Origin: Candidatus Acetothermia bacterium
GTDB taxonomy: Bacteria; Bipolaricaulota; Bipolaricaulia; RBG-16-55-9
DNA: 64,000 nt
NCBI GenBank assembly: GCA_016201405.1
Contig: JACQCZ010000017.1
Coordinates: 62,001 to 126,000, forward strand
Direction: 5' to 3'
Part shown: one piece after another, positions 3,172 to 43,966 of the stretch
Layout: every line of letters begins with the position of its first letter
Numbering within the stretch: the first letter of the stretch is position 1
Notes under the pieces: model-generated
Seen by the model: only the letters and a program-made list of their open reading frames with translations
Databases searched by the model: none
Told to the model about the DNA's origin: nothing
Translations under genes and position numbers: made by a program

Positions 3172-4398
3172 TTAATGGTCGATCTTTGTTGAGGTGTGCT
3201 TCTCTTCTGCGATCAATCCTCTTGGACGATATAACAGGATCACTTCTAGAGCTATCACAATAGCCATGATGCGGATCGGGCCGAAGAGTTGTGATGCGAC
3301 GTCAATCTTCCCCAGCGGCGTCAGTAATGTTGGCGGTAGAATGTCATTCAGGCGTGATGTGGTGCTCCAGATCGCCCACATCAAAAATGCTCCAAAGATT
3401 GCACCTTTGTTATTTCCCGTTCCTCCGACAATAAGCATCACCCATACCAGAAATGTTCTTTGCAGGGGGTCAAAAACGCTAGGATCAATGAACTTGACCA
3501 TGTGAGCTACAATGCTCCCTGCACCCCCCATGATAATGGCGCCAACGATCAGGGATTGCATTTTGAAGCGGAAGGTATTCTTTCCAAGAGCCAATGCCGC
3601 ATCTTCGTCTTCGCGTATTGCCCGGAGCGCCCGGCCCCATGGTGAGCGGGAGATCCGTTCTAATGCCAAAAAGGCAATCAGCAGAAAGCCCAAGACGATC
3701 AAAAAATAGAACCAGTCGTAATGGGCTAGGGAGATGAATTGTGGAATTTTGATCCCAAACAGATCACATGGCGGAGCAGGGTTCGCACCGACAGGGATCA
3801 CCAGACACTGATGCAAGGGTTGCGGAATATTCTCAATCCCGCGATTCCCTATGGTGATGCCACGCTCATTGGTCGCAATCAGACGTAAAATCTCAGAGAC
3901 CCCGATGGTGGCGATGGCCAGATAATCGGACCTCAAACGAAGGGTAGCGAACCCCACAACGACTGCAACAATTCCCGATGCAGCCATAGCTCCCAAAAGT
4001 CCTACTACAAAGGGAAGATTAAAGAAATGAACTGTGATAGACTCATTGCCTGCTCCAACCACGTTGATTGGGTCTTGAACCAGGATTGTGGACACATAAG
4101 CACCGACGCCAAAGAAGCCGGCTACGCCGATATTGAATAATCCCGTATAACCCCACTGGACGTTCAGTCCCAATGATAAGATGGCATATGTCCCACCAAG
4201 CATGAGGAAATCCACTAGAAAAGAGAACATACTCTCGGAAGGAGCGTCAAGGAGAGATCCAATAAGTACGGTCAAGCCTAAGGCTATGAGAGTGCCGACG
4301 AAAGCAATCCAACGGGAGCTTCTAGACTTTCGCGTCAACAAAATAGCAAGACCGGCAACGGAAATGATGACGAGAAGCAGCGAGATGATCTGTGACAT
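3172..4398 (-). CDS. livM: branched-chain amino acid-type ABC transporter permease (LivM)
   Basis: A 408-residue polytopic inner-membrane permease of the LivM family. It has many hydrophobic helices, the conserved NVQWGYTGLFNIGVAGFFG signature around residue 80, and the EAA-like loop ALGKNTFRFKMQSLIVGA with the preceding RAIREDEDAA motif that docks the ATPases. The ending (ALEVILLYRPRGLI) is the usual LivM close followed by a short tail. It is the last gene of the minus-strand livG-livF-livH-livM series and starts 7 bases after the end of livH. It forms the translocation pore with LivH; substrate specificity comes from the binding protein at 1771. Confidence 0.9.
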   Translation of the reverse strand: MSQIISLLLVIISVAGLAILLTRKSRSSRWIAFVGTLIALGLTVLIGSLLDAPSESMFSFLVDFLMLGGTYAILSLGLNVQWGYTGLFNIGVAGFFGVGAYVSTILVQDPINVVGAGNESITVHFFNLPFVVGLLGAMAASGIVAVVVGFATLRLRSDYLAIATIGVSEILRLIATNERGITIGNRGIENIPQPLHQCLVIPVGANPAPPCDLFGIKIPQFISLAHYDWFYFLIVLGFLLIAFLALERISRSPWGRALRAIREDEDAALALGKNTFRFKMQSLIVGAIIMGGAGSIVAHMVKFIDPSVFDPLQRTFLVWVMLIVGGTGNNKGAIFGAFLMWAIWSTTSRLNDILPPTLLTPLGKIDVASQLFGPIRIMAIVIALEVILLYRPRGLIAEEKHTSTKIDH

Positions 4399-4405
4399 AT
4401 TTGTG

Positions 4406-5473
4406 CTATCCCTTCCTTCCCGCCGACCCTAAAAGCCCTTGAGGACGGACCAGCAGCATAATGATCAGCAAAAGAAATGCTATTCCTGGCTTGTATTGAC
4501 TCGAGATCGTGGTGACTGGTGCGATCAGAATCGTCTGTGCGATTCCGATCACAAGCGCTCCAAGCATTGCACCGTAGGGGCTGCCAATGCCCCCTAAGAT
4601 CACTGCTGCAAAGAGATAGAGCAGAATGTCTGAGCCTTGGATCGGAGTAAGCCCGCCTAGATTGAGTCCTGCGAAGACTCCGGCGACGGCTGCAAGACCT
4701 GAGCCGATTCCCCAAGTCCAGCGAATCATCTTTTCGGTATTGATCCCGCTCACTCTGGCGAGATCCATGTTATCAGACATGGCTCTCATGGCTTTCCCAG
4801 TGCGAGTGTATCGCAAGAAGAGGTGCAGCAATATGATCAACGTAAATGCGGTCGTTATAGTCACGAGCTGCAAGAGAGTCATTCTGAACTGAAAGATTCC
4901 AAAGGCATCCACATACATTGGAAGGGTCACACGAACCGAATACGTATGAGTTGCGACTCCCCAGACGGCCTGCACCAGTGCACGGATGAAGAGTGCCATT
5001 CCAAAAGAGGCAATGACTAAGACTACTGACGCGCTTCGGCGTAATCGACGATAGAGGATCCGGTCGATGAGCAGCGCGAACCCGATAGCTCCAAAGACTG
5101 CCGAGATCATTGCGATGAAGAGGGCGATAAGCCGCAACAGATCATCATTGGCTGGGTCTGCAAGAATGGGAAAGAGTTGCGGCAGCGAATCCACCATAAG
5201 GCCATCGACAGAAAAGGCAATATATGCCCCAAAGATCAGAATGTCTCCATGTGCAAAATTGGCAAAGTTGAGAATTTTATAGGTGAGCGTCAGACCAATC
5301 GCGCCAAGCATCAGAATGCTGCCAAAGCGGATGCCATCTACAATAGGCTGGGGACCGCCATTGTCTGCGATGAAGAGCCCCCAGATCAGTCCCAAGGCGA
5401 TGATTCCCCAAATGACCCATTTGGTGATCGCTTCTCTATTGTGTCTGATCCATGAGAGCAGAGTAGCCGGCAA
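4406..5473 (-). CDS. livH: branched-chain amino acid-type ABC transporter permease (LivH)
   Basis: A 355-residue membrane protein of the LivH family. The conserved block GIRFGSILMLGAIGLTLTYK followed by the NFAHGD signature is present as DGIRFGSILMLGAIGLTLTY and NFANFAHGDI. The ATPase-contact loop (RAMSDNMDLARVSGINTEK) and the C-terminal GxGSPYGAMLGALVIG and VRPQGLLG segments are present too. It is longer than the usual ~290-300 residues because of an extra N-terminal helix and a longer periplasmic loop. It is cotranscribed between livF (10 bases upstream) and livM, and with LivM forms the pore of the importer. Confidence 0.9.
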   Translation of the reverse strand: MPATLLSWIRHNREAITKWVIWGIIALGLIWGLFIADNGGPQPIVDGIRFGSILMLGAIGLTLTYKILNFANFAHGDILIFGAYIAFSVDGLMVDSLPQLFPILADPANDDLLRLIALFIAMISAVFGAIGFALLIDRILYRRLRRSASVVLVIASFGMALFIRALVQAVWGVATHTYSVRVTLPMYVDAFGIFQFRMTLLQLVTITTAFTLIILLHLFLRYTRTGKAMRAMSDNMDLARVSGINTEKMIRWTWGIGSGLAAVAGVFAGLNLGGLTPIQGSDILLYLFAAVILGGIGSPYGAMLGALVIGIAQTILIAPVTTISSQYKPGIAFLLLIIMLLVRPQGLLGSAGRKG

Positions 5474-12669: not shown

Positions 12670-12698
12670 TTGACAGTCGGTCAGAACTATGATAATAT
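12670..12698 (+). promoter_or_regulatory. plus-strand promoter upstream of small-ORF region
   Basis: A perfect TTGACA (12670-12675) is followed after 17 bases by TAATAT (12693-12698); GATAAT at 12691-12696 overlaps it. It points to the 16-codon frame at 12753 and the small protein genes beyond. Confidence 0.5.
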
Positions 12699-12752
12699 AC
12701 ACGAACTTTACGGCCAGAGTAAATTGACTGGCACAAGGGGGGTGGTATCACA

Positions 12753-12803
12753 ATGATCAGAATGCAAACAACAGTGGTATCCGCCCCGGTTAAGTCCCTC
12801 TAA
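12753..12803 (+). CDS. possible 16-residue leader peptide
   Basis: ATG 12753 follows a G-rich AAGGGGGGTGG stretch and encodes MIRMQTTVVSAPVKSL before a TAA. Its last codons lie inside the hairpin at 12782-12818, the layout of an attenuator or leader peptide. No homology is recognisable and translation is unproven. Confidence 0.25.
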   Translation: MIRMQTTVVSAPVKSL

Positions 12804-13077: not shown

Positions 13078-13164
13078 ATGATATCTTCGATTCTTGAAGC
13101 AAAGACATTTCAACCGGATGTTCGATGTGCCCGCACTAGGGGAGGTGCGTCTGATCCTACATAA
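13078..13164 (+). CDS. possible 28-residue peptide upstream of small accessory protein
   Basis: ATG 13078 has a good ribosome site (TTGGAGGAACG). It encodes 28 residues beginning MISSILEAKTFQPDV and ending in TAA, 11 bases before the GTG start of the next frame. It has no recognisable domain. The strong ribosome site and tight spacing suggest a two-cistron unit or a leader peptide. An alternative minus-strand frame overlaps the region but lacks a ribosome site. Confidence 0.35.
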   Translation: MISSILEAKTFQPDVRCARTRGGASDPT

Positions 13165-13175
13165 AGGAGGGATCT

Positions 13176-13412
13176 GTGTTAGATAGCCCCCATAATCTGG
13201 AAAAGTTAGTTAGATTGAGCCATGCAAGTCGTTTGAGTGAAGCCGAGCGCGAGAGGATGCTTCGAAAAGTGAAGGTCTCTCAGCCCAGCCTGTTGGATAA
13301 AGTCCTTCTCCGGCTGGGCGAGTTGCTGATCGCGTTTGGGTCACAGCTAAAAAAGCGCTACACATTGGCACCCAGTGGGAGTCGCTGCCAGATCGAGCAC
13401 TCGATCGAATAG
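13176..13412 (+). CDS. small uncharacterised protein (LEK-AE-RML-LL family)
   Basis: A 78-residue protein with a GTG start behind AAAGGAGGGATCT. The N-terminal half is a charged amphipathic helix (LEKLVRLSHASRLSEAERER) followed by ML and a short linker. A second, hydrophobic amphipathic helix (LLDKVLLRLGELLIAFGSQL) ends in KKRY. The same layout occurs in the 59-residue protein at 41298-41477 (LEKIVKERH, AEEKRML, LLSRVFQRL), so the two are paralogues. I recall similar small proteins scattered in Chloroflexota genomes, without known function. A strong terminator follows. The second helix could lie on a membrane surface. Confidence 0.6.
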   Translation: MLDSPHNLEKLVRLSHASRLSEAERERMLRKVKVSQPSLLDKVLLRLGELLIAFGSQLKKRYTLAPSGSRCQIEHSIE

Positions 13413-13420
13413 AGAAGAGT

Positions 13421-13459
13421 GAGGGAGCGGGTGTGCATTGCATCCGCTCCCTCTTTTTT
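13421..13459 (+). terminator. intrinsic terminator after small protein gene
   Basis: GAGGGAGCGG (13421-13430) pairs with CCGCTCCCTC (13444-13453), followed by TTTTTTA. This confirms transcription of the plus-strand small ORFs to its left. Confidence 0.88.
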
Positions 13460-41088: not shown

Positions 41089-41297
41089 AATTGATCTCAT
41101 TTCTTCCGACACTATACGGACAGCTCAACGAAGAAGCAAAGTAGGAGCTTGCCTAAATTTTCTCCATCATTTGTCCTAGAAGCTCATAAATTCACCCCGT
41201 CAAATGTCTTGGCCAAATCGCATCATTGGTCGGATGGATTGAGCCACTCTTTCATTTAGGCTTTTCACAGATCGCAGAAAAGAGAGGAGTGAGCAAA

Positions 41298-41477
41298 ATG
41301 ATGGAAAGCAGCATGACACTCGAAAAGATCGTCAAAGAGCGGCACTCCACACTGATACGCGATGCAGAAGAGAAGCGAATGTTAAGCCTCCTTGCACCGG
41401 CTAGAATCGATACCAGGAGTGGCCTGCTTAGCCGAGTATTTCAGCGCCTGATGCACCAAGTCAGGATGATCATCTAA
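41298..41477 (+). CDS. small uncharacterised protein, paralogue of the 13.2-kb small protein
   Basis: A 59-residue protein whose ATG follows AGAGGAGTGAGCAAA. It has LEKIVKERHSTLIRDAEEKR followed by ML, a linker, then SGLLSRVFQRLMHQVRMII. This is the same two-helix plan as the 78-residue protein at 13176-13412, but it lacks that protein's C-terminal tail. The first helix is highly charged and the second amphipathic. No known domain is recognised. It stands alone between a divergent lipoprotein gene and the peptide-binding protein gene. Confidence 0.6.
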   Translation: MMESSMTLEKIVKERHSTLIRDAEEKRMLSLLAPARIDTRSGLLSRVFQRLMHQVRMII

Positions 41478-41695: not shown

Positions 41696-43966
41696 ATGAC
41701 GTTCAAGCGATGGGGTCTCTTTGCTTTACTTGTAGTATTTGGCCTGTTGACAGTGGGATTGACGGGCTGTGGCGGAAATAAGACAGGCACATCTTCGAAT
41801 TCTTCAAGCAATAACAACTCAAATAACGACGCCAACAAACCTGCTACAGCACCCAATACCAACGCAAACACTGCTCAGCAAAACCCAACAACGCCTAATA
41901 CTTCGAGTACACCCGGCACACAGACGCAAAATCCACCGACTTCAACCACTCTTCCTGCTACGACTACTCCAACGACTCCACCCACCACCCCACCTGTGAC
42001 CACAACTCCGACGACTCCCACCACTTCGCCACAGAACCCGGCTTCGACTCCTCAACCGCCGGCATCAAGCCCGCCAACCAGCACTCCTCCGCCTGCTTCA
42101 GCCGCAGTGGTCAAGAACCCCGATACATTGGTGCTCACGCTCACAGCTGACCCTATCGAGACGCTTGATCCGGCCTATGCATATGACAGCGGCAGCGGAT
42201 GGATCATCTTCAATATTTACGAGACGCTCATCTTTTGGGATGGCGATAAACCAGACAAGTTCGTTCCCATGCTCTCCACTGCTGTCCCGAGCCTGGACAA
42301 CGGGCTGATCAAAGACGATGGCAAGACCTACGTCTTCCCCATTCGAAAGGGAATCAAGTTTCATGCTGGACCCGTAAAAGATGCTCAGGGGAACGTCATC
42401 CCTGGCAGCGGCGAGCTCACCCCCGACGACGTCGCTTATTCCATACAACGCCTGTTGCTTGAGGATCGCTCCGGTGGGCCAAGCTGGCTGATGATGGAGC
42501 CACTTCTTGGATCAAGCTCCATCATGGACTTTGGCTATGCTCTTCAGCCTTCGGCCAAAGCTGGCGCAGCGAAGTTGAGTGAAAAGTTGAGCGCTGCAGA
42601 GAGACTGAGGACCATCTTTAGTCCGGAGACGTTGAAGTCCATCTGTGATCAAGTCAAATCAGCTGTGACTGTGGATGGAGACAACGTTGCTTTCCATCTC
42701 AAAGAGTCCTTCGCGCCATTCCTTCAGGTCGTTGTCGGCTACTGGGCTTCGATTCTGGACAAGGAGTGGGTAATGACGGATATCCACAATGACGCGGGAG
42801 CTTTGGTCAAGAAGGCGGGCTGGGATGGCAATTGTGCGAGCTGGCCAGACTTCTACGACCCTGACCAAAGCGCCTCAAGTCTCTATAGCATTGCCAATGG
42901 AACGGGCCCGTATAAGTTCGTGCGCTGGAGGCCGAACGAGGAGATTTATCTGGAGAGAGATGAAGGGTATTGGCGTGAGCGCCCTGCCAATCTCAAGTAT
43001 GTCTCCTTCAAGTTTAGCCCTGAGCTCTCTACCCGGCTTTTGATGCTGCAAAACGGGGATGCAGACATCGTCACCATCCCTCTTGCCAGTCAGGATCAAG
43101 TCGAGCCCCTGGTTCAGAGAGAGCTGGTCTCAAAATATGAGAATCAGCCCACTGGCAGTGCCTATTTCTGGATCTTCAACCAGAAGATCAGCATGACAGA
43201 CAACCCCTATGTGGGCAGTGGCAAGCTTGATGGCGATGGCATACCAGCCGACTTCTTTAGCGACCTCGATGTTCGTCAGGGCTTTGGCTTCGTCTTTGAC
43301 TGGCAGTCTTATTTGCAGAATGCCATCCATGGCGAGGGCACGCGTTTCCGTGGTGCGATTGAGAGCTCGGTCTTTGGCTACAACCCCGAACAGCCTGTCT
43401 TTGACATCGATCTCGACAAAGCTAAAGAACACTTTCAGAAGGCTTTTGGGGGCCAGCTTTGGGACAAGGGCTTCAAGTTCATCGTCCCCTATGTCCAGGG
43501 CGGTCAAGCCGTCAAGATCACTACCCAGATCATGGCCAAGAACTTGGCTTCCATCAACCCCAAATTCCAATTGATTTCCCAAGACTTCCAGAGCAACACG
43601 ATCAGCCAGGACGGTGATTTGGGGAAGATTCCGATGGACTATAACGGCTGGGGAGAAGATTACCATGACCCCAATAACTGGGTCTTCCCGATCTTGGACA
43701 GCAATGGCTATTACGCCCGCAACATGGGTATGGATCCCGAGCTCCAGAGCCAGCTGGATGACATGATTGTCAAGGCCAGGCGTGAGCTCGACCCAGAGAA
43801 GCGCAAGGAGACCTATTTCGAGCTGCAAAAGATCGTCTATGACAAAGCGCTGATCATCCCATTGGAGGAATGGCACCGGCGCCGCTATACCCGCAGCTGG
43901 CTGCACGGGTATCTGAACAACACGGCATTTCCCGACTACTATTTCTGGTACTTCTCCAAGAGCTAA
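41696..43966 (+). CDS. ABC transporter substrate-binding lipoprotein, family 5 (peptide/oligosaccharide type)
   Basis: A 756-residue binding protein of the OppA/DppA type. The signal ends in the lipobox GLTGC (Cys ~25). It is followed by an unusually long low-complexity linker of ~110 residues rich in Asn, then Thr/Pro/Ser (residues ~27-140). The binding domain starts at LVLTLTADPIETLDPAYAYD. Typical segments are GIKFHAGPVKDAQGNVIPGS, NGTGPYKFVRWRPNEEIYLE and SPELSTRLLMLQNGDADIV. Ligands of this family include peptides, nickel, sugars and opines. It starts an operon with the two permease genes. Ribosome site GGGGGTATGGC. Confidence 0.9.
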   Translation: MTFKRWGLFALLVVFGLLTVGLTGCGGNKTGTSSNSSSNNNSNNDANKPATAPNTNANTAQQNPTTPNTSSTPGTQTQNPPTSTTLPATTTPTTPPTTPPVTTTPTTPTTSPQNPASTPQPPASSPPTSTPPPASAAVVKNPDTLVLTLTADPIETLDPAYAYDSGSGWIIFNIYETLIFWDGDKPDKFVPMLSTAVPSLDNGLIKDDGKTYVFPIRKGIKFHAGPVKDAQGNVIPGSGELTPDDVAYSIQRLLLEDRSGGPSWLMMEPLLGSSSIMDFGYALQPSAKAGAAKLSEKLSAAERLRTIFSPETLKSICDQVKSAVTVDGDNVAFHLKESFAPFLQVVVGYWASILDKEWVMTDIHNDAGALVKKAGWDGNCASWPDFYDPDQSASSLYSIANGTGPYKFVRWRPNEEIYLERDEGYWRERPANLKYVSFKFSPELSTRLLMLQNGDADIVTIPLASQDQVEPLVQRELVSKYENQPTGSAYFWIFNQKISMTDNPYVGSGKLDGDGIPADFFSDLDVRQGFGFVFDWQSYLQNAIHGEGTRFRGAIESSVFGYNPEQPVFDIDLDKAKEHFQKAFGGQLWDKGFKFIVPYVQGGQAVKITTQIMAKNLASINPKFQLISQDFQSNTISQDGDLGKIPMDYNGWGEDYHDPNNWVFPILDSNGYYARNMGMDPELQSQLDDMIVKARRELDPEKRKETYFELQKIVYDKALIIPLEEWHRRRYTRSWLHGYLNNTAFPDYYFWYFSKS

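What the first reader, a model, noticed from the sequence alone, without database searches (positions are those of the whole stretch)
13176..13412. Paralogous family of tiny two-helix proteins (here and at 41298-41477)
Both proteins share L-E-K-[LI]-V, an H-x(4-6)-AE-x-x-RML helix and a second amphipathic LL-x-x-V-x-x-RL helix. Both have strong ribosome sites, different neighbours and no known domain. A conserved dispersed family of small proteins may have a structural or regulatory role that annotation pipelines miss.
Basis: partly seen in the sequence, partly recalled or inferred. Interest (0 to 1): 0.5.

Follow-up and report, generated by a model that had tools for sequence, protein, structure and literature searches.

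The report
Family of tiny two-helix proteins
Two tiny, separate genes in a little-known bacterium belong to a genuine, so far unnamed family of 50-80-residue helical proteins, other members of which sit beside gene regulators or head a cell-skeleton operon, which hints at a role in coping with stress although no function has been tested.

Summary
P1 (13176-13412) and P2 (41298-41477) share LEK[LI]V, H-x6-AExxRML and LLxxVxxRL; 0 of 5000 shuffles reach their alignment score. They are dispersed members of a real family in the phylum Bipolaricaulota (Acetothermia): a profile matches 34 of 100 held genomes of the phylum, and 0 of 22 and 0 of 151 elsewhere. The own genome has four copies. No Pfam model matches any of 33 members.

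The informative contexts are those of other copies. In many relatives a copy is the first gene of a DUF4004(YhbD)-bactofilin operon, behind a promoter with the palindrome GTAACA-N6-TGTTAY. That site also lies just upstream of yhbD in Bacilli and Clostridia, without the tiny gene. An HMM built from these operon-defined proteins ranks P2 and P1 first and second among 833 window frames. Another type sits under a conserved promoter divergent from an ABATE-CGNR regulator, also in the own genome. AlphaFold gives two helices.

Mechanism is unproven: I favour a stress-induced small adaptor. P1 and P2 themselves have no regulator neighbour and no syntenic orthologue.

The parts
13163..13171 (+). Shine-Dalgarno-like AAAGGAGGG of P1
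   Evidence: read from the sequence; 4 nt before the GTG
13176..13412 (+). P1, 78-aa member of the family (GTG start)
   Evidence: 3.0e-23 with profile A1, of which it is a row; 1.9e-5 with an HMM built without it; helices 5-33 and 39-63
13421..13459 (+). intrinsic-terminator-like hairpin and T tract directly after P1
   Evidence: stem 13421-13453, -30.3 kcal/mol, z -6.65
41285..41289 (+). Shine-Dalgarno-like AGGAG of P2
   Evidence: read from the sequence
41298..41477 (+). P2, 59-aa member of the family
   Evidence: 3.0e-16 with A1, of which it is a row; 9.8e-7 with an HMM built without it; helices 2-32 and 43-58, the second at low confidence

Best explanation
Shown: P1 and P2 are dispersed paralogues of a family of 50-80-aa proteins of Bipolaricaulota, made of a conserved polar N-terminal helix (consensus about LxxLAxxRHxELLREAExxRLxR) and a variable, more hydrophobic second helix (often LGxLLIxxGxxLKxR, ending RP[VI]L). 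Shown for other copies, not for P1 or P2: they are placed directly behind regulated promoters, one type with the YhbD-linked palindrome heading the DUF4004-bactofilin operon, another divergent from an ABATE-CGNR regulator, and two lie next to arsM, one of them in a gene row arsR-arsN2-tiny-arsM. Inferred: the proteins are small, stress-induced adaptors. The conserved N-helix would be the docking face for a partner protein, and the second helix would give dimerisation or a membrane contact, so that each copy tunes a larger envelope or detoxification protein made in the same response. P1, a one-gene unit closed by its own terminator, and P2 would be free-standing copies that act in trans.
For: Family: and the reciprocal tests (18 of 47 small ORFs taken after the site reach E <= 0.01 with an HMM of 17 dispersed members including P1 and P2). 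Restriction: 34 of 100 phylum genomes against 0 of 22 (E <= 0.01) and 0 of 151 (E <= 0.001). Purifying selection: dN/dS 0.06-0.69 in 19 pairs of 6 orthologue sets, 16 of them at 0.45 or less. Two helices predicted for P1 (pLDDT 86.7, pTM 0.42) and P2 (76.9, 0.43). Regulated placing of other copies: palindrome, DUF4004 and Bactofilin by Pfam, MFS_3 and ABC exporter genes behind the same site or in the same gene row, ABATE-CGNR, ArsR, ArsN2 and ArsM. Seven loci carry two sites, one of them 67-111 nt before the yhbD signature as in Bacilli; in six of the seven a small ORF lies after the first site, so that it can be a unit of its own under the same regulator.
Against: No regulator is adjacent to P1 or P2 and neither has one of the two promoter types. 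Membrane contact is weak: helical moments do not beat shuffles (1 of 12), and a TM-like tail was seen only by eye in two members (L081, L055). Low pTM (0.42, 0.43) means that the packing of the helices is unknown. The own genome's YhbD operon has no tiny gene (L123), so the protein is dispensable for that operon. A surplus of regulators next to dispersed copies is not significant: at least 10 of 46 immediate against at least 4 of 41 second neighbours (counted by hand).
Confidence: 0.35

Rival explanations
1. Feedback co-regulator: each tiny protein binds the transcription regulator next to it (YhbD, ABATE-CGNR, ArsR, MarR) and acts as an anti-repressor or co-repressor, so that the regulator switches on its own modulator first.
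For: First-gene position behind the palindrome in many Bipolaricaulota operons; duplicated site before yhbD; divergent ABATE-CGNR at 4 loci; MarR-like gene 10 nt upstream in G050 and ArsR-type gene 1 nt upstream in G008:C26.
Against: The regulators belong to unrelated families, so one conserved N-helix would have to recognise all of them. P1, P2 and several others have no regulator beside them. The surplus of regulators is not significant.
Confidence: 0.2
2. The ORFs are leaders: their translation or transcription tunes the downstream genes and the product itself has no job.
For: Position between promoter and yhbD, in several loci 30-80 nt before the next start.
Against: Purifying selection, protein similarity between copies in unrelated contexts, P1 with nothing between it and its terminator, and a second site after the small ORF in six loci.
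Confidence: 0.07
3. Small toxic peptides, or the toxin part of a toxin-antitoxin pair.
For: Small, mostly basic, helical, rapidly diverging, dispersed copies; one copy faces an antitoxin-like gene (L269, by eye).
Against: No recurring partner gene beside the dispersed copies in the neighbour clustering; no PHROGs match except one member at 0.001; copies set tightly into ordinary operons. PADLOC was not searched.
Confidence: 0.08
4. No family: charged helices that look alike by chance.
For: Only the N-helix is conserved in many members; mean column identity of the 33-row alignment is 19%.
Against: 0 of 22 and 0 of 151 genomes outside the phylum match.
Confidence: 0.03

Closest known systems
yhbD(DUF4004)-yhbE-yhbF (bacE-bacF) operon of Bacillus subtilis
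   Same: Same regulator-like family and bactofilins; the same GTAACA-N6-TGTTAY site lies about 20 nt before yhbD in Bacilli. PMC4627819 (passages read) calls yhbD, yhbE and yhbF a putative operon.
   Different: The Bacillus loci have no tiny gene between site and yhbD. P1 and P2 are not in such an operon at all.
ABATE-CGNR (PF07336/PF11706) putative stress-induced transcription regulators
   Same: Divergent neighbour of four tiny-gene loci, including the own genome's pair on contig C8.
   Different: The tiny protein is not a member; it is only a likely target. P1 and P2 lack this neighbour. PMC2954205 was seen only in a search listing with the start of its abstract.
Small stress-induced membrane-modulator proteins such as AcrZ or MgtS of E. 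coli (recalled, from no call)
   Same: Size class and supposed mode of work: a small helical protein induced by stress that tunes a bigger membrane protein.
   Different: No sequence relation was tested; a transmembrane helix is not evident in P1 or P2.
Pfam DUF4072 (PF13284)
   Same: Weak match of P1 residues 4-23.
   Different: 12.8 bits against a cut-off of 24.6, E 0.16; no member matches at E <= 0.01.

Membership tests
Tiny two-helix family described here | N-helix with AExxRL core, found by an HMM built without P1 and P2 | tested here: met
   P2 9.8e-7, P1 1.9e-5, ranks 1 and 2 of 833
Tiny two-helix family described here | two predicted helices and no other element | tested here: met
   second helix of P2 only at pLDDT about 66
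Tiny two-helix family described here | codon-level purifying selection | tested here: inconclusive
   Met for six sets of operon-borne orthologues; not testable for P1 and P2, which have no close orthologue in the genomes searched
YhbD-bactofilin operon member | GTAACA-N6-TGTTAY site upstream of the tiny gene | tested here: not met
   P1 and P2: no such site upstream; the own genome's one match is at G000:C3 before DUF4004. Met for other copies, e.g. G006, G013, G017
YhbD-bactofilin operon member | DUF4004 and bactofilin genes downstream | tested here: not met
   P1 is followed by a DinB_2 gene, P2 by a lipoprotein-like substrate-binding gene
ABATE-CGNR-linked copy | divergent ABATE-CGNR gene and the TAACCRTCRTAA / TTGACA-17-TATAMT promoter | tested here: not met
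   Not at P1 or P2; met at G000:C8, G010:C14, G013:C130, G001:C43; promoter alone at G017:C295
DUF4072 (PF13284) | score over Pfam's gathering cut-off | tested here: not met
   12.8 against 24.6 bits
Small membrane-modulator proteins (recalled class) | membrane localisation through a TM or amphipathic helix | tested here: inconclusive
   helical moment not above shuffles for P1 (0.32) or P2 (0.08); localisation not testable with these tools
Toxin-antitoxin pair | recurring partner gene next to the small gene | tested here: not met
   beside dispersed copies only regulators and peptidase- or hydrolase-like genes recur, no toxin-antitoxin partner

The most novel reading that the evidence does not exclude
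Bipolaricaulota own a modular stress-output protein: one small helical scaffold that has been placed, with its own ribosome site, behind the operators of several unrelated sensors (YhbD, ABATE-CGNR, arsenic regulators), each copy acting as the first-made effector or feedback partner of that response; P1 and P2 are free-standing copies of it. The YhbD-linked DNA site, shared across phyla, would be the entry point for testing this.
Probability: 0.15. Interest if true: 0.8.

Novelty: new variant of a known kind. Interest (0 to 1): 0.5.

Why it matters
Small proteins are the least annotated part of bacterial genomes, and this family has no match in Pfam (33 members), in NCBIfam (P1 and P2) or in PDB sequences below E 0.48. 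It links three things of unknown function in one testable set: tiny proteins, the regulator-like YhbD/DUF4004, and a DNA site with the same letters in Bacilli and Bipolaricaulota. The site makes YhbD's role directly testable in laboratory B. subtilis. For the window genes alone the gain is modest: they are real members with no telling context of their own.

Tried and rejected
Rejected: (1) first guess that the genome is of Dehalococcoidia (written in the notebook); record titles and contig lengths of relatives show Bipolaricaulota/Acetothermia. (2) The P1 hits in G011, G012, G014 and G018 with a 67-aa frame (MSKPTHPKV...) look like another family and were not used. (3) A P1-like stretch in L035 near 4696 (E 0.04) has no N-helix in any frame. 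(4) Loci on the minus strand were first read in the wrong orientation; redone. (5) Neighbour clustering failed twice by script errors and was redone. (6) search for related loci with P1 found no relative in genome contigs; with alignment A3 it was not possible. (7) Plasmid search with one member: no match. (8) Helical moments gave no support for amphipathicity. (9) The surplus of regulators beside dispersed copies is not significant; counts were read by hand from tables cut at 25 families. For that test the 11 loci with a DUF4004 operon, one of the two tandem copies, and proteins over 1100 aa, with unknown bases or off the contig were left out. (10) No fold search was run: two helices match too much. 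Not done: PADLOC search; a test of Chloroflexota or Actinomycetota, where I recall similar-looking small proteins (recollection only).

Literature: searches. No paper in that library holds DUF4004 or the site's letters, and none holds both Bipolaricaulota and 'small proteins'. PMC12837462 and PMC4627819: passages read. PMC2954205: search listing only.

Full report
Observation. P1 (window 13176-13412, GTG start) and P2 (41298-41477) are open frames with strong ribosome sites. BLASTP of the pair gives E 1e-5; 0 of 5000 shuffles of P2 reach the alignment score, and no other SD-led small ORF of the window comes near (10 ORFs including the two). P1 is closed by a strong terminator-like hairpin. P2 has none.

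Where it lies. The window is part of contig C6 of a 1.99-Mb genome in 19 contigs, 90.76% complete.

The family. tblastn with P1 in 60 relatives gave small ORFs in other genera, the best at 3.9e-5; P2 finds the same place in G010. A profile of 11 members (A1) matched 24 of 100 phylum genomes at E <= 0.01, with strong hits that were not in the alignment: G017:C295 2e-19, G008:C26 9e-13, G006:C12 1.4e-12. A profile of 33 (A2) matched 34 of 100; many of those rows are members of the alignment itself, and the weakest rows (E above about 1e-3) may be chance. Matches at E <= 0.01: own genome 4, G013 8, G008 5, G010, G017 and G047 3 each. The own genome's other two lie side by side at C8:133362-133529 and 133537-133764. 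Outside the phylum nothing matched: 0 of 22 genomes at E <= 0.01 (mostly Firmicutes that have the YhbD site) and 0 of 151 of the phylum of G100 (an Armatimonadetes record by title) at E <= 0.001. 0 of 33 members match Pfam at 0.01, one matches a PHROG at 0.001, P1 and P2 match nothing in NCBIfam, and no PDB sequence is below E 0.48.

An unexpected anchor. Upstream of many members a near-consensus promoter carries a palindrome, TTGACAAC-GTAACA-GTGTTA-TGTTAY-AMT. The pattern TAACAGTGTTATGTTANAMT with at most one mismatch occurs in 55 of 100 phylum genomes, once or twice in each; the reversed control pattern occurs in none. Of 69 listed sites, 58 in 52 genomes lie within 700 nt upstream of a DUF4004 gene on the same strand; DUF4004 itself is in 78 of 100 genomes. 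Across all genome contigs an exact pattern gave 101 stretches, of which 80 loci were returned and examined: 69 of 80 have the DUF4004 signature within 2.6 kb downstream; of the 11 others, 6 are cut within 550 bases, and two of the 11 (L135, L201) have a bactofilin-like frame next. Most records are Bacilli, with some Clostridia, one Armatimonadetes record and the Bipolaricaulota. In Bacilli yhbD mostly starts about 20-25 nt after the site and no tiny gene lies between. In Bipolaricaulota a tiny gene often does. Seven loci have two sites, one of them at a Bacillus-like distance (67-111 nt to the signature) before yhbD; in six of the seven a small ORF follows the first site. In two genomes of one genus (G003, G004) the tiny gene lies upstream of both sites instead. 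The own genome has the site and DUF4004 but no tiny gene there.

Independent test of membership. An HMM from 22 distinct proteins, extracted as the first SD-led small ORF after this site and not by resemblance to P1 or P2, was run on 833 frames of at least 40 residues from the window. The two best hits are P2 (9.8e-7) and P1 (1.9e-5); the third is at 0.16. The list of loci was drawn up after earlier hits had been seen, so the choice was not blind, and one of the 22 (L163) probably has a wrong frame. In the reverse direction an HMM of 17 dispersed members finds 18 of 47 ORFs after the site at E <= 0.01, the best at 1.7e-15; others in the same position score poorly (L111 0.079, L127 0.21, L128 0.025, L144 0.39, L103 0.95).

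Other contexts. Pfam confirms DUF4004 and Bactofilin in the own operon, ABATE plus CGNR zinc finger divergent from the tiny genes at G000:C8 and G010:C14, and an ArsR-type HTH_20 with AHSA1 around G008:C26. ABATE is found in 4 of 46 immediate neighbours of dispersed copies. The five promoters of this type align: TAACCATCATAA, CTTGACAGGTTA, TGCTATAATCTAACCGTCRTAA. In G013:C116 the gene row is arsR-arsN2-tiny-arsM and in G017:C295 tiny-arsM. The YhbD-linked site also precedes an MFS_3 exporter in G008 and an ABC-transporter ATPase frame in Bipolaricaulis-type genomes (the ABC one read from its sequence). P1 and P2 stand apart: P1 is between a divergent TPR-like lipoprotein and a DinB_2 gene, P2 between lipoprotein genes (lipoproteins by eye). 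Their flanking genes occur in other genomes without a tiny gene within 1.5 kb. One further DinB_2 neighbour exists, at G013:C24, which may be chance.

Selection. In six sets of close orthologues, all but the G003/G004 pair lying directly after the site, dN/dS is 0.06-0.69 in 19 pairs, 16 of them at 0.45 or less (Nei-Gojobori). The three highest values (0.51-0.69) come from very close pairs with few changes. P1 and P2 could not be tested.

Structure. AlphaFold: P1 helices 5-33 and 39-63, mean pLDDT 86.7, pTM 0.42; P2 helices 2-32 and 43-58, 76.9 and 0.43. The packing is not resolved.

Mechanism. The helices (as predictions) and the placing behind regulated-looking promoters are shown; that YhbD and ABATE-CGNR bind those promoters is inferred from position and symmetry, and everything beyond is inference. 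I favour a stress-induced small adaptor because the constant element is a polar docking-like helix while the second helix varies, and because the linked genes (bactofilins, exporters, arsenic detoxification) are envelope or detoxification functions. B. subtilis yhbD is of unknown function; its loss gave a small effect against one antibiotic producer (PMC12837462, passages), and BacE/BacF matter for motility (PMC4627819, passages). A feedback partner of the neighbouring regulator is the main rival.

Verdict. A real, apparently phylum-restricted, unnamed small-protein family, found by a correct reading. The more surprising part is not in the window: a DNA site shared by Bacilli and Bipolaricaulota upstream of yhbD.

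Noticed in passing
L123:4072-4091 (G000:C3:147571-147590), and L133-L212: Palindrome GTAACAGTGTTATGTTAY in the promoter of DUF4004/YhbD genes, with the same letters in Bacilli, Clostridia and Bipolaricaulota (69 of 80 named loci); no paper with the letters in the library. A candidate YhbD operator.
   Followed up: partly
L120:2641-3966; L085, L086, L089: The same site also stands before an MFS_3 exporter (G008) and an ABC-transporter ATPase frame (Bipolaricaulis-type genomes), a possible wider regulon.
   Followed up: partly
L033, L132, L264, L265, L266: Conserved promoter with TAACCRTCRTAA repeats between tiny genes and a divergent ABATE-CGNR gene (four loci) or without it on the contig (L265).
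   Followed up: partly
L132:4063-4311 and 4238-4471 (G000:C8): Two family copies in tandem with overlapping frames in the window's own genome.
   Followed up: no
L283:2189-4187: Tiny gene inside the row arsR-arsN2-tiny-arsM, overlapping arsN2 by a few bases.
   Followed up: no
window 12670-12803: Promoter-like TTGACA-17-TAATAT with TG, then a short frame behind a GGGGGG run and a GC-rich inverted repeat, about 500 bp before P1; unexplained.
   Followed up: no
window 41696-43966: Substrate-binding-like lipoprotein with a very long T/P/S/N-rich linker after the lipobox-like cysteine (read).
   Followed up: no
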